Positions 34,250 through 64,000 of a stretch of 64,000 nucleotides of DNA are shown one piece after another. This DNA comes from Siderastrea siderea (Eukaryota > Cnidaria > Anthozoa > Scleractinia > Rhizangiidae). The translations under genes were made by a program, and so were the position numbers. Where the stretch lies: assembly GCA_964030785.1 (NCBI GenBank), contig OZ034976.1, positions 2,480,001-2,544,000 of the forward strand, written 5' to 3'. Numbering within the stretch: the stretch's first letter is position 1; each line of letters opens with the position of its first letter. The notes below the pieces were generated by a model, which was not told the origin of the DNA, searched no databases, and saw nothing but the letters and a program-made list of their open reading frames with translations.

Positions 34250-34606
34250 TTTTTACCTTAATTTCTTTCTGAATCTTGTTCATGCAAGAAAACTCGTTTG
34301 TCATGTTTAAGGTGGTTTAAAATTAAGCGTCAAAAGTATTTCATGTTTGTGTGGGTTTCTCTTTACTACACGCCGTGATTGGTTAAAAAAAAAACTCGCG
34401 ACACTTTCTCGACCAATTGAAAGTAAAATCAAAACATAATAATAATTAATAATAATAATAATTTATTACTTTTCAGGCGCAAATAAGCATAGGGATATGA
34501 TCAAACCATGACTTGCTCACACGTTTTCCCGCACTTGACCACTGAGGCCTTTTACGACCGGCTCATTTGAAAAACGCTCAATGAGAAGCTAGAGTACTCT
34601 TGGAGG

Positions 34607-34615
34607 AAAAAAAAA
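34607..34615 (-). terminator. Pol III terminator of tRNA-Leu
   Basis: Nine T bases on the minus strand, starting one base after the tRNA 3' end. Confidence 0.85.
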
Positions 34616-34616
34616 G

Positions 34617-34700
34617 TACCAGGAGTGGGGTTCGAACCCACGCGGACAATACGTCCATTGAATCTTAAGTCCAACGCCTTAACCACTCGGCCATCCTGGT
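34617..34700 (-). tRNA. tRNA-Leu, anticodon UAA
   Basis: 84 nt with a complete class II fold: acceptor ACCAGGA / TCCTGGT plus discriminator A, D arm GGCCGAGTGGTTAAGGC, anticodon loop CTTAAGA (UAA), long variable arm, and T arm with GGGTTCGAACCCC. One G-T pair sits in the anticodon stem (TTGGA/TTCAA). Directly after the 3' end is a run of nine T on the transcribed strand, a Pol III terminator. Probably functional. Confidence 0.95.
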
Positions 34701-34708
34701 AATGTTAC

Positions 34709-35738
34709 TTCGGTTGGAAATAATGCAAAGACTGTTCAGACAACGTGCACGAGGCGTAAATGCAATATTTCGGCTGGCCAATACCAGCCTTCTTCAGGTT
34801 TATTGAATGAAATGTGAATTTACATGGTCTTTATATAACGAACCGGAAATAACAGGACAGGGCTACGTGATGTGTTAAAAATACAGAAAAACAATAATAA
34901 TGAAATAAAAGAGGAAATACAGTATAATAGAGATAAGGAAAAAGCTGGTTGGATTACATTTCATCTCTTCTGTTAAGACCTGGAGGCTCCAGTGTGTTTC
35001 CTCGGTGGATGAGGAATGCCTCACGAGCCTTTCTAACTGACTCACGATTAGTATATAATTTTTCAAGTGGTATAAGAAGCAGATGATTAACCGTATGATT
35101 GCCAGTAATAAAGTGTCGTGAGACAGCGGTAGGATTGTAGCTGGAGGTGTTGATAATGGGTCGCTTATGTTCATTAAAGCGTTCTTTGACTTTGAGGCGA
35201 CGTTTAGTTTCTCCGATATATTGAAGATTACATTTAGTACATTGAATCATGTAAATCACATTACGCGTTTCACAAGTAATGTGCGATTTGATTTGATTCA
35301 TTTGTCCAGTACTATTAAAAGTATATTGCGTGCGGCCATCTTCGATATAAGGGCAGGTGGTACAATTATTTTTATTGCACCGAAAAGAGCCAGGAGGAAA
35401 CCGTGAGTTGTCAGTGTTGACAGGTTCCGGTAACTTAGCTCTAACAAGAATGTCACTAACGTTTTCACAACGCCGGTGGGCTACTAGAGGAAGACTAGTA
35501 AAAACCTTTTTACAAGGATCAGATAAGTAGAGAACATGAGAGTGTTTGTGGATTATGCGGGTTATGTTAGGTAAAGCAGGATTGTATGCAATGACAAAAG
35601 GAACAGTATCTGTCTGTCGTTTAGGTTTGGTTTTAAGAGCGTCGTTGCAAGAAACGTAAGAAGCCCGTTGTATTTGGGTTTTAAGAAAATCTAGTCTATA
35701 ACCCCGATTAACGAGGTAGTTCATAAGTACTTCAATCT
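34709..35738 (-). mobile_element. 5'-truncated Penelope-like retroelement with GIY-YIG endonuclease
   Basis: An open frame (35,724-34,954, 256 aa) encodes the C-terminal part of a Penelope-type polyprotein. CNKNNCTTCPYI is a Cys-rich linker. VIYMIQCTKCNLQYIGETKR has the GIY-YIG endonuclease core, followed by R and EH (RFNEHKRP). The reverse transcriptase is missing, so this is a truncated insertion. It lies between GTTACTT and GCTGATAATT, which are nearly adjacent in units 2 and 3. So the element entered only unit 1, or was lost from the others. Confidence 0.88.
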
Positions 35739-36224
35739 GCTGATAATTATTTTAAAATCTCTTATTCCATGCCTTTCTATTCCATGCCTTTGTTATTAGA
35801 GATGTTTCAGGACAGAGCAGTTTAGAGTACGATTTCACGGGCAGCAACATAACTGCAAACTTTTAAAAACAGGGAAGCCACGTGTTCGGCTACCCGCGTG
35901 ACCCATGCGCTGAGAAAAACGCTGTGAAGTTTTGGGTAAAGATAAATTTCTTAAAATGAATAATTTATTTATTCAAAGAAGAATTATCGTAATCCAATAA
36001 AATTATTGGTAGCACCATGAAATCTACAATTGAATCGAATTTTTACACGCTTCATGAAAATTACGTGTAAAGACCATGCCACTTTGTTGTCTTGCACACG
36101 TCCAAGATAGCCAAAGATAGCCGGCAATCAAGGGATTATGAAGGGGAAGTTAGAGCAAGCAAACCCGGAAAGCACAGGACACATCGAGTTCCACACGGGG
36201 GTTAGCAGCTTTGGTAGGGTGGGG

Positions 36225-36640
36225 TGAGTGGGGTGCGGTGGTGTAGTGGTTGCGCGTTGGACTTAAGATCTGAAGGTCGGTGGCTCGACGCCCAGTCCCT
36301 GCCATCGTGTTGTTTCCTCAGACAAGAAACTTTACCCCACATTGTCTCTCTCCACCCAGGTGTATAAATGCGTACTGGTGACATACTTCTGGGGATAACC
36401 CGGCAATGGACATCCAGGGGGAGTAGCAATACTCTCAGTTACTTCATGCTACAGAACCCGGGTTAAGCTCCGGCTCGTGTGGGCCCCCTTGGCTTGTGTG
36501 CGACTTTACCGAGGATGAGGCAAGGTGAGTCCTGACAACAGCAGAAACCTGCTCTCAACGTTTAGTTCAGCTGGTGGGCAAGGCACCGGTATCCCGGGGG
36601 TAATGGGTTCAATTACCGTTACAGTCTTAAAGTTATTTCT
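36225..36640 (+). mobile_element. tRNA-derived SINE pair, unit 1
   Basis: First module: A box TGGTGTAGTGG, B box GGCTCGACGCC, then a body ending near CGTGTGGGCCCCCTTGGC. Second module from about 36,558: A box TAGTTCAGCTGG and B box GGGTTCAATTACC. Two Pol III promoter-like heads lie in the same direction, just before gene A. Confidence 0.7.
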
Positions 36641-36864
36641 TTTTCTTTTTCCTTTTGTTTTTCAGGCTAAAAGGGAGAATTGCTTCAATTGCTTTTACAC
36701 TTCGAAGATCATTCCACTCATTTCAAGTTTGAGCCACAGTTCATATACACGTATGTCTTTTATATATTTTTTTTCAGGTCGGGATTTAATAAATATTTTA
36801 TTGTTTGTTGTCACTTGAACTGTCTGAACTCGTCCTGGTATATCTCAGCCAACGTTTGTTAAAG

Positions 36865-39800
36865 ATGGACGTCTATCAGCTCCTCCTGTTTGCGTTGGCG
36901 ATCATCTTTGCTGAAGGTACGTAAGAAAAACAGAACCACAGGAAGTCAAGAGAGAGAGACAGTCACAGACAGAGAGAGAGATAGAGAGAGAGAGAGAATA
37001 AGAGAGAAAGAGAGAAAGTTGTTCATTCATTGTATCTGGACCGTGATTAGTTCTGAGAGGAGAAAGAAATGAGTAAACGAAAAGGGCGGATGAAAAGGTG
37101 TTTTCCCACCAAATTTTCGAACCTTTTATAAATGGCCACCAAAATGCCCTAACGATGATCGCCTAAAGTAAAGGGGTGGTCGCCTACGAAAAGTCTCAAA
37201 TGTAGCTAGGTTATGAATAGTAAAAGAAATTCGGTATCTTTGACTAGTGATCACGTAAGAGGGGTTGTCAGGTTTAGGACTGGAAATTTAAAAAAACCTG
37301 TGGATAAACTGATGCTATAGTCGCCATCATTTAGTCTTAGATCCTACGGATATAGATCCTTTTCAGTTTGCGCGCCTAAGCTTCGGAATTCGCTACCTTT
37401 TCATATAAAATCTAGCCCTTCAGTAGACGTTTCTTCTCAAGAAAGCTTTTTATCGAACACTTTATTTTTGTGACTGTAGACTTGTAGTTTTTTATTTTTA
37501 TTTATTTTTATTCCCGTCTCAGTAGAATAAACTGGTCACTCAGTTGACGCGGGACTCTTGTGCGACAAAACAGTTGTCTATTACGACCCGTCCTACCTGG
37601 CGTTAAAAATGGTTTTTCATTTATCCGGCACTTTCATCTGTCTATTTCTGATCTTTCTCAAGCAGTAAATCGACGGGTAGGAAGACCGCCGTATCGATCC
37701 GTTGACGAGTATCTAACGTTAGGACGAGTTATTCATCTATAATAAGACGCCGATCATATTAGACGATCGCGCAAGTTATCGATTTGTTTCCATATATAGT
37801 TATCTGTTTTCTTATATATGCAGTCTTCATAGGAGCCAGAACGTTTCAGTATTCTCGCTTTGTCAATGTTATTAAAACACCTGTTCCGTCAAATGGTCAG
37901 TCTGGCCTTTGAGATACCACAAGAAATGCATGTCGGAGTAATAATGCTGCTTATTCCCTTTATGATACAAAACCAGAAAGTCCTAGCACCGATGACTTAA
38001 CAACGACCTACCACGTCTGGTAAAACTTCATTGGCTTCCGATTTCCTACCGTGTTGTGTTCAAGTTACTTTTGTTGGTTTTGAAAGCTCTAAATGGTCTT
38101 TGCCCTCGGTTTTTGGTCGAATTACTTCAGTACCAGAATCTTTCCAGGACACTTCATTCACATTCCTTAGAACTTCTTTTGCAACAGAAATCCAATACTA
38201 AAACATATGGCGACAGGGCATTTTCCATATGTGCCCCTAGACTGTGGAATAGTATTCCCTTAGACATTCGTAAATGGAACAGCGTTTCTATTTAAAAAAA
38301 AAACAATTAAAGACCTACCTTTTTAGGAAATTTATTAATAATGGTTTATATCTTCTTATTTCTATTTTTATTTATTAATATATAGACAAGAGCGTTTTAG
38401 TGAAAAACAGACCACTCGTAACTTTCATACGAAACTACATCCGGAACTCGAGTGGCGTATTTTCCATATCCTCACTAGTGAGGATATCGATGACGTCATT
38501 TCCCGCTTTTACACTGCTGTTTGTGCAAAAATACTCTTTTCTATATAATAAAAAGAAAATTACACGGTGGCTTGAAGATATAAATTTTATTTTCTCGTGG
38601 TAAAAAACAATATTTTACTCACTCGCTGCGCTCTTTCGTAAGATATTGTTTTTACCACTCGAAAATAAAATTCATATCTTCGCACCGCCGTGTAATATCC
38701 TCTATATATTTATTATTATAAAATTATTATTTTTAACATTGTTGTAAAGCACCACGAACAACTAGTGGATTTGAGCGCTATAAAAGTGTTTAACTAATTA
38801 ATTAACCTAACCATTCAAACATTTAGAGTTGTTTTATTTTAACAGGAAAACAAGAAAAATGCAGCACAAAGATTGACCTAGCTATCGTTTTAGACGCCTC
38901 TGGGAGCATTGGCGAAGCGAACTTTAACATGGCCAAAGACTTCGCCAAAGAACTGTGCAGACGATTCGTGATCTCCAGAGACAAAGTTCACGTATCTATT
39001 GTCTCTTATTCTCAGTATGTCCATTTAATGCCTAAGTTCAGTGATTGCTATGATGAGAAGTCGCTCGAAAATGCTTTGAATAACCAGCATCTCTACGAAG
39101 CTTCCTCGACCAGTACTGGCAGGACATTGAAAGTTGTCTATTTTGACGTGTTTAATGAGAAGAGGGGCGGAGCGAGAACTGAGGAGCTTGGTGAGCAGTT
39201 GAGCAGTTCTTTATCGTTCATTCATTTTATGTTCCAGCAATGCTTGCTGTACAGTCCTGTATATACAAACGTAATGCATAGGAAATTCGGCGAAATTCAA
39301 ATAGACGAACTTTCGTTGCAAACAAAATATCGCCGAAATTCCACAGTTTTTTCAGAAATCTATTGTTTACGTTTCGGCGCGGACAATTTCGCGATTGGCG
39401 AAAACACAAATGTCTAAAGACATGGTTAGAGCCTAATTTGCATAACATCTACTCACCTGTTCATAACTTTGGGGACATTTGCTGAAAAGCTCTCAAACTT
39501 TGCACCCATTTAAAACGTGATGGCCTTAACTCAATATTTAAACTTAAGTGCCCAACGCTTGTGTCACGTGACCAGTGAAGGATGATTAAGGGTCAAAATC
39601 TTTAGAGTGAAATGGGGAATATAAAATGAAACAGAATTAAATCTTTTTGGGTGTCATTCTTTTACATCCAAAGAGCTTATAATGAATTCGCCTTGTGAGA
39701 TTGTCTATTTTATTTATATTAGAAATTATTAAAGCATTAATTAAGTCACCTGACCTATTTTCGTGATTTGTAGGATTTCTACTTAATATGGACACGTTTA

Positions 39801-41073
39801 AAAGGCGAATTTATGATGGCCGCTTAGCATGTAAAAGAATGACACCCAAAAAGATTTCTTTTTATCTCATTTTATATTCCCCATTTCACTCTGAAAATGT
39901 TAACTGTGACCCAAATGATTGACACTTGAAGTCAAAACTGAGTTAGGGTTATCAGTTTTCCACAATTGCCAAGTTTGAGAGTTTTTCGGCAGATTTCCGC
40001 AGAGTTATGACTTTTGGGCAAATTTATGCAAATTAGGCCCAAACCTTGCCTTAAGTGGCCTGAGGTTCGCAGTTGTGAACGAAAATTCTCGTGAACTTTC
40101 GTTTGCCTAAAGCAAAAGTTCGTATGCAGGAGCTGAAGGTTCATGAGTGTTAAAAGAAAATTCGCCTACATTCAGCGAAAATTCGCCAGCCGACATTAAA
40201 TGTAACTGTCATTCACTCTCAGAGCTCTGAATTAGCTAGCGCAGAACTTGTGATCATGAAAGACCTTCGGTTCCAAAGCGGTTATCCACGTTGCCGGTGA
40301 GCCAACTTTAAACTAGCATTAACTCATACAATTTTGTTTTGATTTGGCAAAAAAGAAAACGTAAGGTCACCCCATCATTTCATACTTTCCAAGTAAGTGT
40401 CAATGCATGTAAATCATAGCCAGAGGAACCGCCACGTTAATGTATTTTATTTCGAAACTCCATTTCTTAGCACATGCATGGCGATGTCTCGGGCGTTCAG
40501 CAGCCCTCTCTCTGATTGTTTTGAATAAGGTACCTCATGCTTGAGCGAAATCCCGAGCATTTTCCTTTCATAGTTCTCTGAGTAAATGCTAAGTTGTGAA
40601 GTGATCCCTTGCTCAGCGTCCAAGTTTGGCATCCGGCGTACGTTAACTAATGGATAGTACATGCTTTTAACAGTTTCTTATTTGAGTCAGGCTTGGACGA
40701 CTCTCTTTATCCTTGAGGATTACCTGTTTCTCCCAAAGGCAGCAATTTTTGTCTTGTTTTTCAAAACACTTTTGTTCCATTGTATTTTTAACTTCTTCAA
40801 TTTGTTTTCTCTTTCATCACAGATGTAAAAAAGGTGACCGTCGTCGTTACAGATGGTTACAGCACGACCGGAGTCGAATTTGTGAAAGACAATGCCAACC
40901 TTTTGAAGAATGCTGGAATTGAAATATTTGCAATCGGGATTACCAAGAGAATGAGAGACGAAGAATTGGTTATTTTATCAAGTGAACCTGTTAAAAATCA
41001 TTTCTTCAGGCTTTCTGATTCAAACTCTGTTAAAGGAATAGCCGACTCTATCATTAAGCAAGTGTGCAAATAG
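36865..41073 (+). CDS. Secreted vWA-domain protein, gene A copy 1
   Basis: Three exons, 36865-36916, 38846-39190 and 40823-41073, join in phase to 215 aa. Residues 1-17 are a signal peptide (MDVYQLLLFALAIIFAEG). One vWA domain fills the rest: strand IDLAIVLDASGSIG with the metal-binding DASGS, a second site near SSTSTGRTL, and VTVVVTDGYS with the MIDAS aspartate. IEIFAIGITKRM and ELVILSSEPVKNHFFRL follow. Cysteines just before the domain (EKCSTK) and at the end (KQVCK) could form the usual closing disulfide. There is no other domain, so it would be a small soluble extracellular binder. Relatives are matrilin and collagen VI type vWA domains. The ligand is unknown. A 5' UTR intron (about 36,750-36,777) seems likely. 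Confidence 0.9.
36948..37018 (+). repeat. GA microsatellite, unit 1
   Basis: Interrupted GA run in gene A intron 1. The matching runs are longer in unit 2 (45,493-45,590) and longest in unit 3 (54,190-54,318). Confidence 0.9.
37205..37471 (+). mobile_element. LINE 3' remnant in gene A intron 1, unit 1
   Basis: The frame ends in YRSFSVCAPKLRNSLPFHI-like sequence; the family motif in the sister copies is FSVCAPKLWNSLP, typical of the C-terminal end of CR1/L2-type reverse transcriptases. A TAG interrupts the frame here where the others read AAG. Confidence 0.7.
38056..38295 (+). mobile_element. Second LINE 3' remnant, unit 1
   Basis: Encodes VLKALNGLCPRFLVELLQY and AFSICAPRLWNSIPLDIRK, the end of another CR1/L2-like ORF2. 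Shorter homologues lie at 46,816-47,001 and 55,529-55,714. Confidence 0.75.
38559..38700. repeat. Hairpin repeat in gene A intron 1, unit 1
   Basis: ACACGGTGGCTTGAAGATAT and its inverse near ATATCTTCGCACCGCCGTGT flank a core ACTCACTCGCTGCGCTCTTT. Copies at about 47,265-47,402 and 55,980-56,117. Confidence 0.75.
39427..40055. mobile_element. Large foldback element in gene A intron 2, unit 1
   Basis: Arms of about 200 bp (CCTAATTTGCATAA, CTCTCAAACTT, AAATGGGGAATATAAAATGA, TGGGTGTCATTCTTTTACAT on the left; inverses on the right) around an AT-rich centre. Copies at about 48,132-48,750 and 56,838-57,450. Open frames running from the vWA exon into it are read-through. Confidence 0.75.
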
Positions 41074-41674
41074 CGATATATTGCATGAGTTTACAGCTGT
41101 CTTGTTAGAGGGGTCATGCCTTGAACGAAGGTGTTTACCATCGGAGGCGGCAAAATGTAGCCTTCACTCCAGAGAATATGTGCTCTAGAACAAACCCCCT
41201 AGAGCAAGAGGAAAGAGAGCAGGCCTAAATAACTATAAATCATACCTTTTAAATAGCGAAGAAATTATTCGTAAATTTAGTAAATTGCTGTAACTGTTAC
41301 GAACAATTTTCTTATCGTAGAGCCACATCCGAGCCAACAGAAAAAAGGGGGAAAAATAATTCAATCACAAACTTCCGTATATATTGCTTGTCTTTAGAGG
41401 GCGTGATGACTTCAGCGGTAAAAGGGACAAAGTGTTTTGTGTGGTTACTTTATTTGATATTTGTTCGGAAAATGTTCGCCTCTTCAGCCATTGAACACTT
41501 GCAGGGACAAACAAGATTAATTTTGGGTGACTGTTCGATCGTATAACCAGTCTTTAGCACAAGATTATCGATGTAGAGCCGGGGCAACGACGCCCTTGCC
41601 TTTATTCAAATTACCTCCTATGACAGACCGTTTTGTATTTCGCAGCGGCATAACACTTGTTCGTTTAAAACAGC

Positions 41675-41680
41675 AATAAA
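41675..41680 (+). terminator. Polyadenylation signal, gene A copy 1
   Basis: AATAAATAAAATATT about 600 bp after the stop. Matching hexamers lie at 50375-50380 and 59097-59102 after copies 2 and 3. Confidence 0.5.
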
Positions 41681-42040
41681 TAAAATATTATTTCAAGTCC
41701 ACTGCCTCATGTTCTGAATTTAGAGACACATCCTCTTATTTTTGCTTGCATTAGCTTGTTTCGAGTTGGTTGCTGAAAAAAAAATTAGTGTAATCCTATG
41801 GAAGTTTATTCTTTGGTAGCTCTTCTTTGTAAGTCTTTTGTTGACACCCCTATGAAAAGTAATCCATAATATATTAACTTTAGCGCGTGCACATGTTTGA
41901 AGGGGTAGCGGGTAATACCGGCTTCCCCACGCAATTCTTGTAAGTTGTCTCAAGTTGCTTTGTGTTGTTGATCAAATAACAATATTCTACACACGATTAT
42001 CAGATCCCCTGTGGCGTTTTACAGAACGGTTCTCTTTAAG

Positions 42041-42092
42041 ATGGAGTTCTGCCTTTTCTTACTGTTTCTGGTGTCCATTGTTTTCGCTGAAG
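42041..42092 (+). CDS. Orphan signal-peptide exon of gene B, unit 1
   Basis: ATG then MEFCLFLLFLVSIVFAEG, and a GTAAAG donor with one base left over, the same phase as gene A exon 1. No gene B vWA exon follows in this unit; the next vWA exon downstream belongs to gene A copy 2 (47,552). Either a dead fragment or an alternative first exon for that copy. The upstream stretch is kept in all three units. Confidence 0.7.
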
Positions 42093-43938
42093 GTAAAGTG
42101 CCTATTTACAAATTTGTTTGTTTGGTTAAGAAAGAGATCCTGGTAATTGAAAAGACGCATGCAATTTTTAGAGTTTCACAGGTGAAGAAGAGTGCCTGAT
42201 TTTAAAACAGAAAAAAATGGATCAATGACATTGGATGGAATTTTGCCCAGATATTGAAAAAAAAGAAAGTCCCATAGGGAAAAATGCTCGGTAGCTTTGA
42301 TTTGAACGGTGATACGCTGGGATCTTATCAACGGATTCAAAAGTCGGAGAACCACGTTGAACCGTACACTCAAGAGTTATTCTTTTACACAACACAACGA
42401 GGCTCTAGATAGAGTTGGTTGATCGATTACCTCCTCGCTATTGGGATCATTAAATGTTGCCTCTTTCACAGTCAATGAGAGTGATCCTCATAAATTCTTA
42501 CAACAAACTGGTCTGCAGTTTAACAAAATAAAATCACTCGATAAAATTAACGTCTTCAAACTCATGATAATGATTTCAGCATCTCCTGTGAGCGCGTAAA
42601 TTTCTGAAATTTTTTTTCTAGTATTTGTCTTTTTTAGTATTCTTTCAGTCTTTATAATGTTTGAGTGTGAAATTGCTTGTCCAGCAGCTTGTCCTGACAT
42701 TGAAGTAATGAGTGGTTACCAGCATGGGAGAGAAATTAGGCCTCTTTTCTCCTTTTACGAGGAGGTACCTCATTAGGAAGAAAGTCAAATCTCAGCTTTG
42801 TGATAACAACCTCTGCCCCCCCCCCCCCCCAAAAGACAAAAAAATAAACAGATTTACCTTAGTGCCTAAATTGGCGAAATGCTAATCAATACATCGTTTC
42901 ATCTCTCAAAACTTATTGAAAGGTGAAATTAATAATACCTGTTCCAGAGAATTCCAAAACGACACATTTTTTCTCAGTTATTTTCTTTGAATCTTTCTAA
43001 TTTGATTTTGGAAATTGTGAATTTCAGTACCTCTCTTGCCATTAGGTAAGAGTGATTTTACTTTAACCCGTGAAATAGCTAGATACTAAACTATTACGCA
43101 CTGTTATATTACACACTAATTCTATTGTTTTCTTTTGTTCAGCTTTCACTAAGGGAAATTCAAAATGCCCCAAACAAATTAGCGAAAACCGGGGAATGGA
43201 AAATTCTTCTTGAAATAATATTCGGCAGATATATTTCCTCGATAAAGAGTCGTTAGGAGCCGAACCCAAGCGGTCCTGTTAGGCCCAGTGCGGACACCGT
43301 ACCTCCCATGTGCCGTACCAAATACATTTTTGCCCCAAGGTCGTATTAAGCGGCGAGCTTTGCCTTACTCCTGAGATGTTACCTTGCCTAATTGAATTCT
43401 GTCGAAAAAAAACTGATTTGCACACCGTTCCACTGCCAAATAACTGCGTACTACTTGGCACGGCACATGAGAACTACGGCGTCTTAACTGGGCCTTACTT
43501 TCGTTTCGCGGGACTCTAGGCGGTTGACTGTCGGTCACCGGGACATCACACACGGATGGCAAACGCCGCCACCATATTGTTTTAAAACTTAACTTGATGA
43601 CTTGTTCCTTATTTTACCTGCCTTTTTACCTTAATTTCTTTCTGAATCTTATTCATGCAAGAAAACTCGTTTTAGTTTATCATGTTAGGCGGTTAAAAAT
43701 TTAGCGTCGAAAGTATTCCACGTTTGTATGGGTTTCTCTTTACTACACCCCGTGATTGGTTTAAAAAAAAACTCGCGACACTTTCTCGACCAATTAAAAC
43801 TAAAATCAAAACATAATAATAATTAATAATTATAATAATAATTTATTACTTTTTAGGCACAAATAAGCGAAGGGATAAGATCAAACCATGACTTGCGCAC
43901 ACACGTTTTCCCGCACTTGACCACTGAGGCATATTACC

Positions 43939-44012
43939 AACCTCGTTTCCAGGACTTTTTCCCCTTTTTAAATTTGGGGAAAAAGGGAAAAAGTCCTGGG
44001 AACGAGGTTGGC
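43939..44012. mobile_element. Small hairpin MITE, unit 2
   Basis: CCAACCTCGTTTCCAGGACT and its inverse form a hairpin of about 74 bp. Copies at 52,631-52,707 and, with a changed centre, at 61,720-61,805. Absent from unit 1. Confidence 0.8.
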
Positions 44013-44174
44013 CTATTACACGTATTTGTTTCGAGTTCTGATTGGTTTATTACATTGTATAGCTTGCGTCTGCTGTGAATTGGCCAGAGCAATTGCTTTG
44101 GTTTTGGTTTTACGACCGGCTAATTTGAAAACCGCTCAATGACAAGCTAGATTACTCTTGGAGGAAAAAAAGAG

Positions 44175-44222
44175 TGCCAGAGTTGGGGTCCGAACCCACG
44201 CGGACAATTCGTCCATCCTGGT
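44175..44222 (-). pseudogene. tRNA-Leu remnant, unit 2
   Basis: Acceptor stem and T arm remain (CCAGAGTTGGGGTCCGAACC and CATCCTGGT), but the whole anticodon and D region is deleted and the T stem has mismatches. Counterpart of the intact tRNA at 34,617. Confidence 0.85.
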
Positions 44223-44721
44223 AATGTTACTACTGTTGATAATTATTTTCAAAATCTCTTAATCCATGCCTTTCTATTCCATGCCTTTGTTCTTAGAGGT
44301 TTACCGACAGAGCAGTTTAGAGTGCGATTTCACGCGCAGCAACATAACTGCAAACTTTTAAAAACGGGGAAGTGCGTATTCGGCCACCCGCGCGCGTGAC
44401 CATGCGCTAAGAAAAGCGCTGTGAAATTTTGGGTAAAGATGAATTTCTTAAAATAAATAATTTATTTATTCAAAGAAGAATTATCGTAATTCAATAAAAT
44501 TATTGTGTAGCACCATGAAATTTACAATTGAATCAAATTTTTACACGCTTCACGAAAATTACATGTAAAGACCATACCACTTTGTTGTCTTGCACACGTC
44601 CAAGATAGCCAAAGATGGCCGGCAATCAAGGGATTATAAAGGGGAAGTTAGAGCATGCAAACCCGGAAAGTACAGGACACATCGAGTTCCACACGGGGGT
44701 TAGCAGCTTTGATAGAGTGGG

Positions 44722-45130
44722 GTGAGTGGGGTGGGGTGGTGTAGTGGTTGCGCGTTGGACTTAAGATCTGAAGGTCGGTGGCTCGACGCCCAGTCCCTGC
44801 CATCGTGTTCAGTTTCCTCAGACAAGAAACTTTACCCCACATTGTCTCTCTCCACCCAGGTGTGTAAATGCGTACTGGTGACATACGTCTGGGGATAACC
44901 CGGCAATGGACATCCAGGGGGAGTAGCAATACTCTCAGTTACTTCATGCTACAGAACCCGGGTTAAGCTCCGGCTCGTGTGGGCCCCCTTGGCTTGTGTG
45001 CGACTTTACCTAGGATGAGGCAAGGTGAGTCCTGACAACAGGAGAAACCTGCTCTCAACGTTTAGCTCAGCTGGTGGAACAAGGCACCGGTATCCCGGGG
45101 GTAATGGGTTCAATTACCGTTACAGTCTTT
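44722..45130 (+). mobile_element. tRNA-derived SINE pair, unit 2
   Basis: Same insertion as at 36,225, carried along by the unit duplication. The second module has an extra base pair in CAGCTGGTGGAACAAGG. Confidence 0.7.
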
Positions 45131-45410
45131 TCCCCCTTTGTTTTTCAGGCTAAAAGGGAGAATTGCTTCAATTGCTTTCACACTTCGAAGATCATTCCAC
45201 TCATTTCAAGTTTGAGCCACAGTTCATATACACGTATGTCTTTCATATATTTATTACTGATAAACGTTATCGTAATACAAGGCCAGTTTGTTTTATAAGT
45301 GCACTTCTTTTCTTTTTTTTCAGGTCGGGATTTGATAAATATTTTCTTGTTTGTTGTCACTTGAACTGTCTGAACTCGTCCTGGTATATCTCAGCCAACG
45401 TTTGTTAAAG

Positions 45411-45535: not shown

Positions 45536-45572
<37 letters not shown>

Positions 45573-46164: not shown

Positions 46165-46234
<70 letters not shown>

Positions 46235-52869: not shown

Positions 52870-52917
52870 TGCCAGAGTTGGGGTCCGAACCCACGCGGAC
52901 AATTCCTCCATCCTGGT
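52870..52917 (-). pseudogene. tRNA-Leu remnant, unit 3
   Basis: Same deletion as the unit 2 remnant, with one further base change (AATTCCTCC). Confidence 0.85.
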
Positions 52918-53415
52918 AATGTTACTACTGTTGATAATTATTTTCAAAATCTCTTAATCCATGCCTTTCTATTCCATGCCTTTGTTATTAGAGGTTTACC
53001 GACAGAGCAGTTTAGAGTGCGATTTCACGCGCAGCAACATAACTGCAAACTTTTAAAAACGGGGAAGTGCGTATTCGGCCACCCGCGCGCGTGACCATGC
53101 GCTAAGAAAAACGCTGTGAAATTTTGGGTAAAGATGAATTTCTTAAAATAAATAATTTATTTATTCAAAGAAGAATTATCGTAATTCAATAAAATTATTG
53201 TGTAGCACCATGAAATTTACAATTGAATCAAATTTTTACACGCTTCACGAAAATTACATGTAAAGACCATACCACTTTGTTGTCTTGCACACGTCCAAGA
53301 TAGCCAAAGATGGCCGGCAATCAAGGGATTATAAAGGGGAAGTTAGAGCATGCAAACCCGGAAAGTACAGGACACATCGAGTTCCACACGGGGGTTAGCA
53401 GCTTTGATAGAGTGG

Positions 53416-53825
53416 GGTGAGTGGGGTGGGGTGGTGTAGTGGTTGCGCGTTGGACTTAAGATCTGAAGGTCGGTGGCTCGACGCCCAGTCCCTGCCATCG
53501 TGTTCAGTTTCCTCAGACAAGAAACTTTACCCCACATTGTCTCTCTCCACCCAGGTGTGTAAATGCGCACTGGTGACATACTTCTGGGGATAGCCCGGCA
53601 ATGGACATCCAGGGGGAGTAGCAATACTCTCAGTTACTTCATGCTACAGAACCCGGGTTAAGCTCCGGCTCGTGTGGACCCCCTTGGCTTGTGTGCGACT
53701 TTACCTAGGATGAGGCAAGGTGAGTCCTGACAACAGGAGAAACCTGCTCTCAACGTTTAGCTCAGCTGGTGGAACAAGGCACCGGTATCCCGGGGGTAAT
53801 GGGTTCAATTACCGTTACAGTCTTT
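53416..53825 (+). mobile_element. tRNA-derived SINE pair, unit 3
   Basis: Same insertion as in units 1 and 2, nearly identical to the unit 2 copy. Confidence 0.7.
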
Positions 53826-54104
53826 TTCCTTTTGTTTTTCAGGCTAAAAGGGAGAATTGATTCAATTGCTTTCACACTTCGAAGATCATTCCACTCATTT
53901 CAAGTTTGAGCCACAGTTCATATACACGTATGTCTTTCATATATTTATTACTGATAAACGTTATCGTAATACAAGGCCAGTTTGTTTTATAAGTGCACTT
54001 CTTTTCTTTTTTTTCAGGTCGGGATTTGATAAATATTTTCTTGTTTGTTGTCACTTGAACTGTCTGAACTCGTCCTGGTATATCTCAGCCAACGTTTGTT
54101 AAAG

Positions 54105-54229
54105 ATGGACGTCTATCAGCTCCTCCTGTTTGCGTTGGCGATCATCTTTGCTGAAGGTACGTAGGAAAAACAGAACCACAGGAAGTCAAGAGAGAGAGAC
54201 AGTCACACAGAGAGAGAGAAAGAGACAGT

Positions 54230-54306
<77 letters not shown>

Positions 54307-54898
54307 AGTGAGAAAGAGAGAAAGTTGTTTTTTCATTGTATCTGGACCGTGATTACTTCTGAGAGGAGAAAGAAATGAGTAAACGAAAAGGGCGGATGAA
54401 AAGGTGTTTTCCCACCAAATTTTCGAACCTTTTATAAATGGCCACCAAAATGCCCTAACGATGATCGCCTAAAGTAAGGGGGTGGTCGCCTACGAAAAGT
54501 CTCAAATGTAGCTAGGTTATGAATAGTAAAAGAAATTCGGTATCTTTGACTAGTGATCACGTAAGAGGAGTTGTCAGGTTTAGAACTGGAAATTTAAAAA
54601 AACCTGTGGATAAACTGATGCTAAAGTCGCCATCATTTAGTCTTAGATCCTACGCGTACGGATATAGATCCTTTTCAGTTTGCGCGCCTAAGCTTTGGAA
54701 TTCGCTACCTTTTCATATAAAATCTAGCCCTTCAGTAGACGTTTCTTCTCAAGAAAGCTTTTTATCGAACACTTTATTTTTGTGACTGTAGACTTGTAGT
54801 TTTTATTTTTATTTATTTATTTATTTATTTTTTAAGATTTGATCACATGTAAAGCGCTTTTGGATGTCTTCAGAAAAGGCCCTATATAAATTGTATAA

Positions 54899-54947
<49 letters not shown>

Positions 54948-57900
54948 TCCCGTCTCAGTAGAATAAACTGGTCACTCAGTTGACACGGGACTCTTGTGCG
55001 AAAAAGCAATTGTCTATTACGACCCGTCCTACCTGGCGTTAAAAATGGTTTTTCATTTATCCGGCACTTTCATCTGTCTATTTCTGATCTTTCTCAATCA
55101 GTAAATCGACGGGTAGGAAGACCGCCGTATCGATCCGTCGACGAGTATCTAACGTTAGGACGAGTTGTTCATCTATGATAAGACGCCGATCATATTAGAC
55201 GATCGCGCGAGTTGTCGATCTGTTTTCATATATAGTTAGCTGTTTTCTTATATATGTAGTCTTCATAGGAGCCAGAACGTTTCAGTATTTTCGCTTTGTC
55301 AATGTTATTAAAACACCTGTTCCGTCAAATGGTCAGTCTGGCCTTTGAGATACCACAAGAAATGCATGTCGGAGTAATAATGCTGCTTATTCCCTTTATG
55401 ATACAAAACCAGAAAGTCCTAGCACCGATGACTTAACAAGGACCTACCACGTCTGGTAAAACTTCATTGGCTTCCGATTTCCTACAGTGTTGTGTTCAAG
55501 TTACTTTTGTTGGTTTTGAAAGCTCTAAATGGTCTTGGCCCTCGGTATCTGGTCGAATTACCTCAGGACACTTCATTCAAATTCGTTAGAACTTCTTTTG
55601 CAACAGAAATCCAATACTAAAACATATGGCGACAGGGCATTTTCCACATGTGCCCCTAGACTGTGGAATAGTATGCCCTTAGACATTCGTAAATCGAACA
55701 GTCTTTCGATTTAAAAAAAAAACAATTAGAGACCTACCTTTTTAGGAAATTTATTAATAATGGTTTATATCTTCTTATTTCTATTTTTATTTATTAATAT
55801 ATAGACAAGAGCGTTTTAGTGAAAAACAGACCACTCGTAAATTTCATACGAAACTACATCCGGAACTCGAGTGGCGTATTTTCCATATCCTCACTAGTGA
55901 GGATATCGATGACGTCATTTCCCGCTTTTACACTGCTGTTTGTGCAAAAATAGTCTTTTCTATATAATAAAAAGAAAATTACACGGTGGCTTGAAGATAT
56001 AAATTTTATTTTCTCGTGGTAAAAAACAATATTTTACTCACTCGTTGCGCTCTTTCGTAAGATATTGTTTTTACCACTCGAAAATAAAATTCATATCTTC
56101 GCACCGCCGTGTAATATCCTCTTCATATTTATTATTATAAAATTATTATTTTTAACATTGTTGTAAAGCGCCACGAACAACTAGTGGATTTGAGCGCTAT
56201 AAAAGTGTTTAACTAATTAATTAACCTAACCATTCAAACATTTAGAGTTGTTTTATTTTAACAGGAAAACAAGAAAAATGCAGCACAAAGATTGACCTAG
56301 CTATCGTTTTAGACGCTTCTGGGAGCATTGGCGAAGCGAACTTTAACATGGCCAAAGACTTCGCCAAAGAACTGTGCGGACGATTCGTGATCTCCAGAGA
56401 CAAAGTTCACGTATCTATTGTCTCTTATTCTCAGTATGTCCATTTAATGCCCAAGTTCAGTGATTGCTATGATGAGAAGTCGCTCGAAAATGCTTTGAAT
56501 AACCAGCATCTCTACGAAGCTTCCTCGACCAGGACTGGCAGGACATTGAAAGTTATCTATTTTGACGTGTTTAATGAGAAGAGGGGCGGAGCGAGAACTG
56601 AGGAGCTTGGTGAGCAGTTGAGCAGTTCTTTATCGTTCATTCATTTTATGTTACAGCAATGCTTGCTGTACAGTCCTGTATATACAAACGTAATGCATAC
56701 GAAATTCGGCGAAATTCAAATAGGCGAACTTTCGTTGCAAACAAAATATCGCCGAAATTCCACAGTTTTTTCAGAAATCTATTGTTTACGTTTCGGCGCG
56801 GACAATTTCGCGATTGGCGAAAACACGAATGTCTAAAGACATGGTTAGAGCCTAATTTGCATAAAATCTACTCAGCTGTTCATAACTTTGTGGATCATTT
56901 GCTGAAAAGCTCTCAAACTTTGCACCCATTTAAAACGTGATGGCCTTAACTCAATATTTAAACTTAAGTGCCCAACGCTTGTGTCACGTGATCAGTGAAG
57001 GATGATTAAGGGTCAAAATCTTTAGAGTGAAATGGGGAATATAAAATGAGTCATGGGTGTCATTCTTTTACATCCAAAGAGCTTATAATGAATTCGCCTT
57101 GTGAGATTGTCTATTTTATTTATATTAGAAATTATTAAAGCATTAATTAAGTCACGTGACCTATTTTCGTGATTTGTAGGATTTCTACTTTAATAATATC
57201 GACACGTTTAAAAGGCGAATTTATGATGGCCGCTTAGCATGTAAAAGAATGACACCCAAAAAGATTTCATTTTATTTCATTTTATATTCCCCATTTCACT
57301 CTGAAAATGTTAACCGTGACCCAAATGATTGACCCTTGAAGTCAAAACTGAGTTAGGGTCATCAGTTTTTCCACAGTTGCCAAGTTTGAGAGTTTTTCGG
57401 CAGATTTCCGCAGAGTTATGACTTTTGGGCAAATTTTGTGCAAATTAGGCCCAAACCTTGCCTTAAGTGGCCTGAGGTTCGCAGTTGTGAACGAAAATTC
57501 TCGTAAACTTTCGTTTGCCTAAAGCAAAAGTTCGTATGCAGGAGCTAAAGGTTCATGAGTGTTAAAAGAAAATTCGCCTACATTCAGCGAAAATTCGCCA
57601 GCCGACATTAAATGTAACTGTCATTCACTCTCAGAGCTCTGAATTAGCTAGCGCAGAACTTGCGATCATGAAAGACCTTCGGTTCCAAAGTGGTTATCCA
57701 AGTTGCCGGTGAGCCAACTTTAAACTAGCATTAACTCATACAATTTTGTTTTGATTTGGCAAAAAAAGAAAACGTAAGGTCACCCCAACATTTCATACTT
57801 TCCAAGTAAGTGTCAATGCATGTAAATCATAGCCAGAGGAACCGCCACGTAAATGTATTTTATTTCGAAACTCCATTTCTTAGCACATGCATGGCGATGT

Positions 57901-58488
57901 CTCTGGTGTTCGGCAGCCCCCTCTCTGATTGTTTTGAATCAGGTACCTCAAGCTTGAGCGAAATGCCGAGCATTTTCCTTTCATATTTCTCTGAGTAAAT
58001 GCTAAGTTTTGAAGTGATCCCTTGCTCAGCGTCCAAGTTTGGCATCCGGCGTACGTTAACTAATGGATAGTACATGCTTTTAACAGTTTCTTATTTGAGT
58101 TAGGCTTGGACGAATCTTTTCATCCTTGAGGATTACCTGTTTCTCCCAAAGGCAGCAATTCTTGTCTTATTTTTTTCAAAACACTTTTGTTCCATTGTAT
58201 TTTTAACTTCTTCAATTTGTTTTCTCTTTCATCACAGATGTTAAAAAGGTGACCGTCGTCGTTACAGATGGTTACAGCACGACCGGAGTCGAATTTGTGA
58301 AAGACAAGGCTAACCTTATGAAGAACGCTGGAATTGAAATATTTGCAATCGGGATTACCAAGAGAATGAGAGACGAAGAATTGGTTATTTTATCAAGTGA
58401 ACCTGTTAAAAATCATTTCTTCAGGCTTTCTGATTCAAACTCTGTTAAAAGAATAGCCGACTCTATCATTAAGCAAGTGTGCAAATAG
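54105..58488 (+). CDS. Secreted vWA-domain protein, gene A copy 3
   Basis: Exons 54105-54156, 56265-56609 and 58238-58488; 215 aa, intact. Particular residues: LCGRF for LCRRF, SSTRTGRTL near the metal site, VKRIADS for VKGIADS; like copy 2 it has KDKANLMKN. Splice sites are conserved. Differences among the three copies are few and spread out with no stop or frameshift, so all three look recently made and still under constraint. The orphan signal exon at 50,740 lies upstream. Confidence 0.9.
54190..54318 (+). repeat. GA microsatellite, unit 3
   Basis: Nearly 70 bases of uninterrupted GA after the same interruptions as in unit 2. Confidence 0.9.
54519..54785 (+). mobile_element. LINE 3' remnant, unit 3
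   Basis: Same 88-codon frame as in unit 2. Confidence 0.75.
54898..54944 (+). repeat. TTA microsatellite, unit 3
   Basis: About 15 TTA triplets; on the other strand it makes a false poly-Asn frame. Confidence 0.9.
55529..55714 (+). mobile_element. Second LINE 3' remnant, unit 3
   Basis: Same as unit 2, with RKSNSLSI at the end. Confidence 0.7.
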
Positions 58489-59096
58489 CGATATATTGCA
58501 TGAGTTTACAGCTGTCTTGTTAGAGGGGTCATGCCTTGAACGAAGGTGTTTACCATCTGAGGCGGCAAAATGTAGCCTTCACTCCAGAGAATATGTCCTC
58601 TAGAACAAACTCCCTATAGGAAGAGGAAAGAAAGCAGGCCTAAATAACTAGAAATCATCATACCTTTTAAATAGCGAAGAAATTATTCGTAAATTTAGTA
58701 AATTGCTGTAACTGTTACGAACAATTTTCTTATCGTAGAGCCACATCCGAGCCAACAGGAAAAAGCGGTAAAAATAAGTCAATCACAAACTTCCGTATAT
58801 ATTGCTTGTCTTCAGAGGGCGTGGTGACTTCAGCGATAAAAGGGACAAAGTGTTTTGTGTGCTCACTTTATGAGATGTTTGTTCGGAAAATGTTCGATTC
58901 TTCAGCCATTGAACACTTGCAGGGACAAACAAGCTTAATTTTGGGTGACTGTTTGATCGTATAACCAGTCTTTAGTACATTCAAGATTATCGATGTAGAG
59001 CCGGGGCAACGACACCCTTGCCTTTATTCAAATTACCTCCTTTGACAGACCCTTTTGTATTTCGCAGTGGCATAACACTTGTTCGTTTAAAACAGC

Positions 59097-59102
59097 AATA
59101 AA
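59097..59102 (+). terminator. Polyadenylation signal, gene A copy 3
   Basis: AATAAA in the same position relative to the gene as in copy 1. Confidence 0.5.
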
Positions 59103-60039
59103 TAAAATATTATTTCAAGTCCACTGCCTCGTGTTCTAAATTTACAGACACATCCTCTTATTTTTGCTTGCATTAGCTTGTTTCGAGTTGGTTCCTAAAA
59201 AAAAATTAGTATAATCCTATGGATGTTTATTTTTTGTTAGGTCTTCTTTGTAAGTCTTTTGTTAACACCCCTATGAAAAGTAATCCATAATATATTAACT
59301 TTAGCGCGTGCACATGTTTGAAGGGGTAGCGGGTAATACCGGCTTCCCCACGCAATTCTTGTAAGTTGTCTCAAGTTGCTTTGTGTTGTTGATCAAATAA
59401 TAATATTCTATACACGATTATCAGATCTCCTGTGGCGTTTTACAGAACGGTTCTCTTTAAGATGGAGTTCTGCCTTTTCTTACTGTTTCTGGTGTCCGTT
59501 GTTTTCGCTGAAGGTAAAGTGCCTATTTACAAATTTGTTTGTTTGGTTAAGAAAGAAATCCTGGTAATTGAAAAGACGCATGCAATTTTTAGAGTTTCAC
59601 AGGTGAAGAAGAGTGCCTGATTTTAAAACAGAAAAAAATGGATCAATGACATTGGATGGAATTTTGCCCAGATATTGAAAAAAAAAAGAATGTCCCATAG
59701 GGAAAAATGCTCGGTAGCTTTGATTTGAACGGTGATACGCTGGGATCTTATCAACGGATTCAAAAGTCGGAGAACCACGTTGAACCGTACACTCAAGAGT
59801 TATTCTTTCACACAACACAACGAGGCTCTAGATAGAGTTGGTTGATCGATTACCTCCTCGCTATTGGGATCATTAAATGTTGCCTCTTTCACAGTCAATG
59901 AGAGTGATCCTCATAAATTCTTACAACAAACTGGTCTGCAATTTAACAAAATAAAATCACTCGATAAAATAAACGTCTTCAAACTCATGATAATGATTTG
60001 AGCATCTCCTGTGAGCGCGTAAATTTCTGAAAATGTGAG

Positions 60040-60691
60040 TCACGCCGGGCCAGCAGAGGGCACGAAGCTGCACGCTCGGAAAAACTTTTGCGTCTTTTAT
60101 CCGATAGAGCTCAAACTTTGCACAATGATAGAACTTTTTATTCCAAACAATCGTATCGTTTTTGTTTTTTCATTTTAACGGTTTTTGGCGGGAAAATGAC
60201 GTCACAGTGCTAAAGGCAAATTTTCAATTGTCTCTTATGGCACAAAAAGTATATGATTCTGAAAGAACTCATTGAGATAAAGTGAAATGCGAAGAAATTA
60301 TTGAAAAAGCTCGATCCGTCTTGAAGATATAAAGATCTGAATTTTATAAATGTTCTAAAAATAGTAACAAAATGGCGGAAAATTCAAACTTCCGAACTTT
60401 ATATCTTCAAGACGGATCGAGCTTTTTCAATAATTTCTTCGCATTTCACTTTATCTCAATGAGTTCTTTCAGAATCATATACTTTTTGTGCCATAAGAGA
60501 CAATTGAAAATTTGCCTTTAGCACTGTGACGTCATTTCCCCGCCAAAAACCGTTAAAATGAAAAAACAAAAACGATACGATTGTTTGGAATAAAAAGTTC
60601 TATCATTGTGCAAAGTTTGAGCTCTATCGGATAAAAGACGCAAAAGTTTTTCCGAGCGTGCAGCTTCGTGCCCTCTGCTGGCCCGGCGTGA
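60040..60691. mobile_element. Foldback MITE found only in unit 3
   Basis: TCACGCCGGGCCAGCAGAGG and its inverse end a 652-bp element whose arms are about 290 bp and nearly identical; the centre is about 70 bp (with AAAATGGCGGAAAATTC). Units 1 and 2 have a different 60-bp stretch here (ending TTTATAATGTTTGAGTGTG), so the insertion followed the duplication and removed some DNA. It lies in the gene B intron. Confidence 0.9.
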
Positions 60692-61168
60692 GTGTGAAAT
60701 TGCTTGTCCAGCTGCTTGTCCTGACATTGAAGTAATGACTGGTTACCGGCATGGGAGAGAAATTAGGCCGCTTTTCTCCTTTTATGAGGAGGTACCTCAT
60801 TAGGAAGAAAGTGAAATCTCAGCTTTGTAATAACAACCTCCGCCCCCCCAAAAAAGACAAAAAAATAAATAGATTTACCTTAGTGCCTAAATTGGCGAAA
60901 TGCTAATCAATACATCGTTTCATCTCTCAAAATTTATTGAAAGGTGAAATTAATAATACCTGTTCCAGAGAATTCCAAAACGACACATTTCTTCTCAGTT
61001 ATTTTCTTTGAATCTTTCTAATTTAATTTTGGAAATTGTGAATTTCAGTACCTCTCTTGCCATTAGGTAAGAGTGATTTTACTTTAACCCGTGAAATAGA
61101 TACTAAACTATTGCGCACTGTTATATTACACACTAATTCTATTGTTTTCTTTTGTTCAGCTTTCACTA

Positions 61169-62378
61169 TTAGACGCTAATTGTTAGCAAGAACAGTTCCG
61201 AAAACTTATTAATGCCTCGATTTGCGAAATGCTGACCAATCGAACCATTCATTTTCGTTTAACATTTAGTTTAATTAAAAGTTGAAACATCCTTGTACCA
61301 AATTTCAAAGCGACAAATTTTCAGCAATAATTGAATGGTCATTATAATAATAATAAGTTAGAACCACCGCAATTGTACAGCATCACTATAACGACGGTAA
61401 CCACGGGTCATACTGTACGGTTCTTCCACGGTCTCAAAGTTAGAACCATCTTAAAGTATATGGTAGATTTAGTTAATGATTTAATAAATCAAAACTGCCT
61501 TGATTCTTTTCCTGTTATGCTAGCCGTTTTTAATTTTGAAACAATCAGAGCACAAATAAAAGCCGAATTACTTGCAATAACACAACATGGTGGCCCCATC
61601 AATGTCCGTTTGCCTACACTTCCTGCGGCTTAATTTGACGGTATTATTTTTGGACTCAAGAATCGACCCTCGTACGCACAAGCGAAGTCACACCCCCAAC
61701 GTGGTACAAGGGAGAGGCAACCTCGTTCCCAGGACTTTTTCCCTTTTTTAAATTTGCGGAGGCGGGAAAAATTTAAAAAGGGAAAAAGTCCTGGGAACGA
61801 GGTTAAGGGAGAGGGGTTTGATGAACCCCTCCCCTCTTGGGTTTTCGTTATGTTAGAATATTTCCAAAAGATTTTACCTTCAGTAGAAAGCCTGTGATGT
61901 GTTCTACAAGATGAGGTTCATATTATGGGTTGGCACGCTGCTTGGGGCCTGTGACGTCATCCAAGATAGCCGCCATTTTGGGCGCCATCTTGGATTTTAC
62001 CAAAAAATTAGAAATTGTCAAAAAACGTAAAAATTTGGACCATTTTGATGCTGGACATGAAGAATGTGCCATAATTAAACATTTTGCTGCTTTATGTTGA
62101 CCTTTTTTTGCATTTTTCACCTAAAAAGTGTAAAAAACACGCATTTTTCTTCAAAAATGGCTTGACCACCTGCTACTTATGACCATAGCAACCGGTTTTG
62201 ACCAAACTTATGTCAGAATGTGTCTAAGGGATAAGCACACAGCTACTGAAAACTGCAGGTCTATATAATATTTGATCTAGGAAAAGTTCAAGAAAACCCT
62301 ATTGTGGCATCCATCCCCCCCCCCTTCCCCCTTGTACGCCTGAGGGTTAAAACCTCATTTCACTCTTTTAATTAGCAG
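61169..62378. other. Gene B intron 1, part outside the duplicated units
   Basis: No exon seen. Holds a hairpin MITE copy (61,720-61,805), a short palindrome with GCCGCCATTTTGGGCGCCAT near 61,970 and a C run near 62,320. The open frame at 61,331-61,633 has no recognised motif. Confidence 0.6.
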
Positions 62379-63031
62379 GGAATGGAAACAAATGCGAGAA
62401 GAAGATCGACTTGGCCGTCGTTTTGGATGCATCTGCAAGCATCGGTGAAGAGAATTTCCTTCTGGCCAAAGACTTTGCCAAAGAACTCGCGAAACGATTT
62501 GCATTATCCAAAAACCAGGTTCGCATGTCTGTCATTTCGTACTCCCAGTATATCAAAATAATGGCCAAATTCAGCGATTACTACGACGAAAAGTCGATCG
62601 AAAATACCGTGGACAAGAGTCTCTACGAAGCATCCTCGACCGGCACTGGGAAGACTTTGGAGGCAGTCAATTTTGAGGTGTTTTCGACAAAGACTGGGGC
62701 GAGAATCGGAAGGCCTGGTAAGCAGCGACCCTCTCTGATTGGCTTAGAGATAGCGTTTATCTTCAACTCTAGATAATCATGTTGGAGATAACAAAGTAAG
62801 TAACTGAAAACAGGCGAGGAAACAAATATGAGGGAAACGGCTTTTCTCTCTCAAGAGCGGGAACTCGAATATCCAAGGTTGGAGATATGTGAGGTCTGTT
62901 TTTTTTCTTGATTTTACGAAACGTATTGCAGCTGTTTTTTTAGTCTGATCATTTTTTGTTTACTGGATTTGTTACAGATGCAAGGAAAGTAACCATAGTT
63001 GTTACAGATGGTTATAGCAGATGGTTACAGA

Positions 63032-64000
63032 TGATTTATTTCAAGCCTACGCCCTCCCGGTGCGTAGTAAAGAATATTGATTAGCATAACTGAATTGTAT
63101 TTTCCTATTGGCGGGTTTTTGATCAACAAAGGGTCACAAAGGAACCGCATATTTCTCGTTCTGATGTAAATATTTTGGCGCCTAGTTACGAAATTTTTAT
63201 TTTTAGGTTATTGCACAACTGTTCTATAGCGTGGTGAAAATTTCGAAGCTGGGAAAGCAGTTTGATTCATCCGTGCTTTGTTTCATTTTTTTATTTGCCA
63301 TTTAGGTGTAAGATACAAAAGTAGAAATGACGCTACTAAGGGAAATTCAAAATGCCCCAAACAAGTTAGCGAAAACCGGGGAATGGAAAATTTCTCGTTG
63401 AAATAATATTCGGCAGATATATTTCTTCGATAAAGAGTCGTTACCCAAGCGGTCCTGTTAGGCCCAGTTCAGACGCCGTACCTCCCATGTGCTGTACCAA
63501 ATACATTTTTGCCCCAAGGTCGTATTAAGCGGCGAGCTTTGCCTTAATCCTGAGATGTTACCTTGCCTAATTGAATTTTGTCTAAAAAAAACTGGTTTGG
63601 ACACCGTTCCACTGCCAAATAACTACGTACTACTTGGCACGGCACATGAGAGGTACGGCGTCTGAACTGGGCCTTACTTTCGTTTCGCGGGACTCTAGGC
63701 GGTTGACTGTCGGTCACCGGAACGTCACACACGGATGGCAAACGTCGCCACCATATTGTTTTAAAACTTAACTTGATGACTTGTTCCTTATTTTACCGTT
63801 ACTGATTAAAACATGATCCAAAATCTCTATTTAGAAGGAAAATCATGAGCTCCTGAGAAAATCCATCAAGACTCGTATATTTCCTATACTTGGGTGTCCT
63901 GTGGTAACAGCTCAAAAATAGTGGTCTTCCCGGAAGCGCGTGAGTAGCAAGCAGTTGACCAGGGCTTTTAGGTGTGACACACAGCACGTTCAATAGAATT
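63032..64000. repeat. Segment X, right copy
   Basis: Starts ATTTATTTCAAGCCTACGCC within gene B exon 3 and matches 31,289-32,262 to the window edge, including the part that units 2 and 3 lack (after TTCCTTATTTTACCGTT). Confidence 0.9.

What the first reader, a model, noticed from the sequence alone, without database searches (positions are those of the whole stretch)
34250..63084. Three-copy tandem array of small secreted vWA proteins, made by repeated exchange between two paralogues
Seen: three units of 8.7-9.3 kb, each with an intact 215-aa signal-plus-vWA gene, and a last, different vWA gene after them. The unit joins gene A to only the first exon of gene B, so the array arose by duplication of a segment spanning the two genes. 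All copies keep the MIDAS residues and splice sites. Inference: a growing family of single-domain extracellular binders, perhaps for matrix, skeleton or recognition.
Basis: partly seen in the sequence, partly recalled or inferred. Interest (0 to 1): 0.8.

Follow-up and report, generated by a model that had tools for sequence, protein, structure and literature searches.

The report
Tandem array of secreted vWA genes
Three near-identical copies of a gene for a small, probably secreted protein with an adhesion-type domain lie side by side in a coral-like genome, and their sequence records how the array grew; tandem gene families are common in corals, so this is a clear but fairly ordinary case.

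Summary
The array is real. Three units (34240-43147, 43612-51846, 52311-61180) each carry an intact three-exon gene A (215 aa: signal-like leader plus one vWA domain with MIDAS residues) and an orphan first exon of gene B. Two corrections. (1) The last gene, B, is not whole here: exon 3 is cut at 63034 by a repeat (R) also present at 31289-32262. (2) The founding event was not an exchange between paralogues: both unit boundaries hold a ~460-bp R fragment joined through 4-bp and 7-bp microhomology, suggesting template switching. A second step was homologous: the middle unit is a mosaic, left like unit 3 and right like unit 1 (breakpoint ~40.45 kb; 0 of 2000 permutations), as unequal crossing-over predicts. 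Relatives with one free vWA domain occur in Oculina, Porites, Pocillopora, Stylophora, Nematostella and Actinia. A homologue's predicted fold matches collagen VI N-domains, mussel PTMP1 and integrin I-domains. Most likely role: metal-dependent extracellular binder (inferred). Purifying selection is suggested, not shown. Interest is modest.

The parts
31289..32262 (+). Repeat R, left copy (~970 bp, outside the array); 92% identical to 63034-64000
   Evidence: self-BLAST; sequence
34240..43147 (+). Unit 1 (8.9 kb)
34556..35736 (-). Unit-1-only stretch: tRNA-Leu-like sequence and an ORF with a GIY-YIG domain (34957-35751), probably a Penelope-like element remnant (element name recalled)
36865..36916 (+). 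Gene A1 exon 1 (signal-like leader MDVYQLLLFALAIIFAE)
38846..39190 (+). Gene A1 exon 2 (first part of vWA, DxSxS)
40823..41073 (+). Gene A1 exon 3 (rest of vWA, stop)
42041..42092 (+). Orphan B exon 1 in unit 1 (MEFCLFLLFLVSIVFAE, phase-1 donor)
43148..43618 (+). Junction 1/2 filler R' (inner fragment of R), microhomology ACTA at left and TTTTACC at right
43612..51846 (+). Unit 2 (8.2 kb), mosaic: left like unit 3, right like unit 1
45411..45462 (+). Gene A2 exon 1
47552..47896 (+). Gene A2 exon 2
49523..49773 (+). Gene A2 exon 3
50740..50791 (+). Orphan B exon 1 in unit 2
51847..52317 (+). Junction 2/3 filler R', same breakpoints as junction 1/2
52311..61180 (+). Unit 3 (8.9 kb)
54105..54156 (+). 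Gene A3 exon 1
56265..56609 (+). Gene A3 exon 2
58238..58488 (+). Gene A3 exon 3
59462..59513 (+). Gene B exon 1 (the copy still followed by B exon 2)
60040..60691 (+). Unit-3-only foldback insertion, 306-nt arms 99% complementary
62379..62717 (+). Gene B exon 2 (first part of vWA; 60.5% aa identity to A1 over the aligned part)
62978..63033 (+). Gene B exon 3, only the first ~56 bp, cut by repeat R
63034..64000 (+). Repeat R, right copy, running to the window's end; contains a ~215-bp element with inverted ends (63457-63677)

Best explanation
A three-copy tandem array of an anthozoan gene (A) for a small, probably secreted protein: signal-like leader plus one free vWA domain with a MIDAS. It grew in two steps. 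Step 1 (inferred from junction sequence): a replication or repair template switch joined the intron of neighbouring gene B at ~61.17 kb to an inner 460-bp piece of repeat R (as at 63.34 kb) through ACTA, and that piece to the region upstream of gene A (~34.24 kb) through TTTTACC, giving two units. Step 2 (mosaic shown; crossover inferred): unequal homologous crossing-over between the two units, near the second intron of A, produced a hybrid middle unit. Each unit kept B's first exon, while B itself is cut in exon 3 by a copy of R. The products probably work as extracellular, divalent-metal-dependent binders of matrix or cell-surface ligands (inferred from fold and MIDAS); dosage or expression change is the likeliest consequence because the copies differ by only 5-6 residues pairwise.
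Against: Selection is not significant: 8 nonsynonymous against 6 synonymous variable codons, p = 0.09; nonsynonymous against introns p = 0.11. Chance of three intact copies without constraint is roughly 0.09. A3 has S107R beside the MIDAS threonine and G204R, and A2 lacks C85, so equal function is not given. The two R' copies differ by 2.4%, more than the ~1% between units 2 and 3 in A's introns, so step 2 may involve older haplotypes or gene conversion. 38 unit-2-unique sites were outside the mosaic test. No expression, ligand or population data; no signal-peptide predictor was run. The genome search tool did not complete, so total copy number is unknown.
Confidence: 0.72

Rival explanations
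1. The founding duplication came from non-allelic recombination between the two flanking R repeats, later trimmed.
For: R lies on both sides of the array (31289-32262 and 63034-64000) and a piece of it in both junctions.
Against: The junctions hold only an inner R fragment bounded by microhomology, and lack the 32.06-34.24 kb and 61.17-63.33 kb stretches that R-R recombination would carry along; two separate clean deletions would be needed.
Confidence: 0.12
2. Stepwise variant: one haplotype first lost 61.17-63.33 kb (including B exon 2) by a microhomology deletion, then a plain tandem duplication joined R to 34.24 kb, and crossing-over with an undeleted haplotype restored B at the end.
For: Gives the same end sequence as template switching.
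Against: Needs more events than template switching.
Confidence: 0.2
3. Assembly artefact: haplotypes or reads falsely stacked.
For: 2-3% divergence is within what allelic copies of outbred animals can show (recalled); reads could not be examined.
Against: Units 1 and 3 each have a large insertion of their own (foldback), both junctions contain an R piece with the same new borders, and two other assemblies list two A-type exons with one contig length (58,535: P0004, P0007, plus B-type P0052; 1,872,947: P0005, P0018). That equal lengths mean one contig is inference.
Confidence: 0.07
4. Cnidocyst component: the proteins are part of the stinging-capsule matrix rather than skeleton or tissue matrix.
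For: In Nematostella, vWFA-domain paralogues are differentially expressed between cnidocyte types (PMC12549020, section 7 read), and three Nematostella relatives share one 2.11-Mb scaffold length.
Against: I could not link those paralogues to this family by identifier; three stinging-cell papers searched by word have no vWA mention in the main text.
Confidence: 0.2
5. Skeletal organic matrix component.
For: vWF-domain proteins are a prevalent class in two coral skeletal proteomes (PMC9532382, one passage); two Acropora vWA genes are expressed in aboral ectoderm that later forms the calicoblast layer (PMC3204972, passages); a coral vWA domain was reported to lower CaCO3 precipitation in vitro (PMC12662967, passages).
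Against: The proteins named there are not shown to be this family, and the anemones Nematostella and Actinia, which do not calcify (recalled), have relatives, so calcification is unlikely to be the original role.
Confidence: 0.2

Closest known systems
Free single-vWA proteins of anthozoans annotated 'cartilage matrix protein-like', 'integrin alpha-E-like', 'collagen alpha-1(VI) chain-like', 'predicted' or 'hypothetical' (Porites lutea, Pocillopora verrucosa, Stylophora pistillata, Actinia tenebrosa, Nematostella vectensis, Oculina patagonica)
   Same: 213-245 aa, one vWA domain, bracketing cysteines; 32-57% identity to A1
   Different: Here in a recent three-copy array with an orphan exon of a paralogue in each unit; whether theirs lie in such arrays was not seen
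Mussel proximal thread matrix protein 1 (PTMP1)
   Different: Two vWA domains, mollusc byssus
Collagen VI alpha3 N-domains
   Different: Parts of a large collagen chain; no collagen helix here
Matrilin-1 (cartilage matrix protein)
   Same: vWA domain; source of one automatic name
   Different: No second Pfam domain in the 215 aa; matrilins also have EGF and coiled-coil parts (recalled)
Tandemly duplicated genes in corals (PMC10236652)
   Same: 29.9% and 32.6% of genes in two corals are tandem duplicates; birth-and-death growth proposed (passages, section 15)
   Different: Its main text does not mention vWA genes (word search)

Membership tests
vWA domain (PF00092) | Profile match over the whole domain | tested here: met
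   A1 residues 28-206, profile 1-172 of 174, 128.5 bits; 6 of 6 aligned members match
vWA domain (PF00092) | MIDAS residues DxSxS, T/S, D | tested here: met
   3 of 3 A copies; D, S, S and D columns invariant in 10 of 10 aligned relatives, the T/S column by eye; metal binding itself untested
vWA domain (PF00092) | Rossmann-like fold of strands flanked by helices | tested here: met
   Model of the Oculina homologue, six strands and seven helices, not of A itself
Anthozoan free single-vWA proteins | Signal-like leader, one vWA, ~215 aa, bracketing cysteines | tested here: met
   leader judged by eye, no predictor run
Matrilin / cartilage matrix protein | EGF-like and coiled-coil parts besides vWA | tested here: not met
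   No EGF or other Pfam domain at E 0.01 in the 215 aa; coiled coil not tested
Collagen VI | Collagen triple helix with vWA domains | tested here: not met
   Only vWA in the protein
Integrin alpha subunit | I-domain inserted in a beta-propeller, transmembrane segment | tested here: not met
   215 aa, vWA only
Microhomology-mediated template switching (MMBIR/FoSTeS) | Microhomology at joins and a templated filler, without flank homology | tested here: met
   4 and 7 bp, ~460-bp R filler, no flank match over 22 bp; a stepwise route gives the same sequence
Unequal crossing-over | Middle unit hybrid of the last unit (left) and the first unit (right) | tested here: met
   gene conversion not excluded

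The most novel reading that the evidence does not exclude
The orphan B first exons are not debris: B's leader exon with its phase-1 donor, and presumably its promoter, now sits 5.5 kb upstream of exon 2 of copies A2 and A3 and could splice in frame to it (both give open 215-aa proteins). The array would then have given two of three A copies a second promoter from a paralogue whose own gene is cut, i.e. expression takeover through an exon-carrying tandem duplication.
Probability: 0.25. Interest if true: 0.5.

Novelty: new member of a known kind. Interest (0 to 1): 0.3.

Why it matters
It is a readable record of how a tandem gene family starts (junction with a filler from a nearby repeat) and then grows (mosaic unit), in a lineage where tandem copies made up 30-33% of genes in two species studied (PMC10236652). 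It also points to a family of free single-vWA proteins shared by corals and anemones, for which my word searches found no dedicated study, and gives a testable case of promoter capture by orphan first exons.

Tried and rejected
Exchange between gene A and gene B as the source of the array: rejected for the founding step, since the breakpoint flanks share no match over 22 bp (best 17 bp, E 0.011), although A and B exon 2 are 72% alike in DNA. Gene B as an intact fourth gene: rejected within the window; tblastn with A's exon 3 finds at B only its first 14 residues, so the rest is lost or lies beyond 64000. Other genes inside the units: 10 ORFs in or beside the units (of 159 that one search lists for the window) scanned, none with a Pfam match above its cut-off. 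dN/dS: 0.26, 0.32 and 0.67 for pairs 1-2, 1-3, 2-3, from 5-6 nonsynonymous and 2-5 synonymous changes each, too few to conclude. Stinging-cell papers PMC6161364, PMC10548089 and PMC8773148 had no vWA terms in the main text. In the exon-2 tree 6 of 78 proteins (P0018, P0019, P0068, P0069, P0076, P0078) were dropped for short or missing overlap; it has 113 columns and 31 open forks of 72 inner branches; the B clade is starred (99), the A clade is not (94). In one search, columns within 3 of a gap were dropped (7515 kept). Naming the species: not achieved; the neighbour protein at ~30.15-30.7 kb matches an unnamed ENA protein at 99%. Tools search for related loci, the DNA search and search_dna_similar were not used. 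One search translated A1 exon 3 in the wrong frame and was not used.

Full report
What is there. Self-comparison of the window shows three direct repeats: unit 1 34240-43147, unit 2 43612-51846, unit 3 52311-61180. Over aligned columns they are 97.3% (1-2), 96.7% (1-3) and 98.3% (2-3) identical. Each carries gene A in three exons with GT/AG sites; 3 of 3 copies read 215 aa. The protein is a hydrophobic leader plus one complete vWA domain (A1: PF00092, residues 28-206, E 4.1e-37). DASGS, the T-loop threonine and TDG are kept in all three. Copies differ by 5-6 residues pairwise, all in the vWA part; A3 has S107R beside the MIDAS threonine and A2 lacks C85.

Gene B. Each unit also holds the first exon of a second gene, B (42041, 50740, 59462). 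Only after unit 3 do B exon 2 (62379-62717) and the start of exon 3 (62978) follow. Exon 3 runs into repeat R at 63034; R, with the same left edge, also lies at 31289 in a different surrounding.

How the array arose. The boundaries between units 1/2 and 2/3 both hold the same inner fragment of R, about 460 bp. At its left end the unit's last bases meet R at a shared ACTA; at its right end R meets the unit's start at a shared TTTTACC. The flanks at 34.2 and 61.2 kb share no match over 22 bp. The filler is nearer to the right R (19-20 substitutions in 451) than to the left R (27-28 in 448). The simplest reading is a template switch from B's intron forward to R and back to the upstream side of A; a deletion followed by a duplication would leave the same sequence. 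This is inference from anatomy.

The second step left a clearer mark. On 7515 clean columns, unit-1-unique sites dominate left of 40438-40491 (118 against 23 unit-3-unique) and unit-3-unique sites dominate right of it (56 against 30); LLR 28.4, and 0 of 2000 permutations reached it (highest 11.4). The 38 unit-2-unique sites do not enter this test. So the middle unit is like unit 3 on the left and like unit 1 on the right, as the long product of an unequal crossover between two units must be. The change is not razor-sharp, and the two fillers differ by 2.4% against about 1% between units 2 and 3 in A's introns, so conversion or old haplotypes may be mixed in.

Is it real, and under selection? 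Unit 1 alone has a 1.18-kb stretch with a tRNA-Leu-like sequence and a GIY-YIG ORF; unit 3 alone has a 650-bp foldback with 306-nt arms 99% complementary. Other assemblies list two A-type exons with one contig length (58,535 bp: P0004 at 98% and P0007 at 84%, plus B-type P0052; 1,872,947 bp: P0005 and P0018). An assembly artefact is thus unlikely, though reads were not seen. Constraint is suggested only: 8 nonsynonymous and 6 synonymous variable codons (p = 0.09), nonsynonymous against introns p = 0.11, no coding indel against 16 gap events counted in the two introns, and a rough 0.09 chance of three intact copies under neutrality.

Novelty. Tandem duplicates are 29.9% and 32.6% of genes in two corals (PMC10236652, passages and section 15), and template switching with templated insertions is a known mechanism (search listing with abstract beginnings only). 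The array is a new member of a known kind. The bolder reading is that orphan B exons supply A2 and A3 with a second promoter and leader: the joined frames are open (215 aa, introns of 5.46-5.47 kb), but no transcript was seen.

Noticed in passing
63457-63677 and 31741-31937: Inside R lies a short element with 35-47-nt inverted ends and, by eye, TTA on both sides in the right copy, like a Harbinger-type MITE (type recalled).
   Followed up: partly
60040-60691: Nearly perfect foldback insertion (306-nt arms, 99% complementary) found only in unit 3 of the three, so probably young.
   Followed up: partly
30144-30743 (- strand): ORF of a conserved uncharacterised protein (191 aa from its ATG); 56 relatives found, 99% to an unnamed ENA protein, 62% over 78% to a Nematostella protein.
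   Followed up: partly
34617-34700, 44730-44802, 53425-53497: tRNA-like sequences: a strong tRNA-Leu in unit 1 only, weak ones just above Rfam's cut-off in units 2 and 3, perhaps SINE-derived.
   Followed up: no
37996-38292: Intron 1 of A1 reads, by eye, like a worn reverse-transcriptase fragment of a non-LTR retrotransposon (no Pfam match).
   Followed up: no
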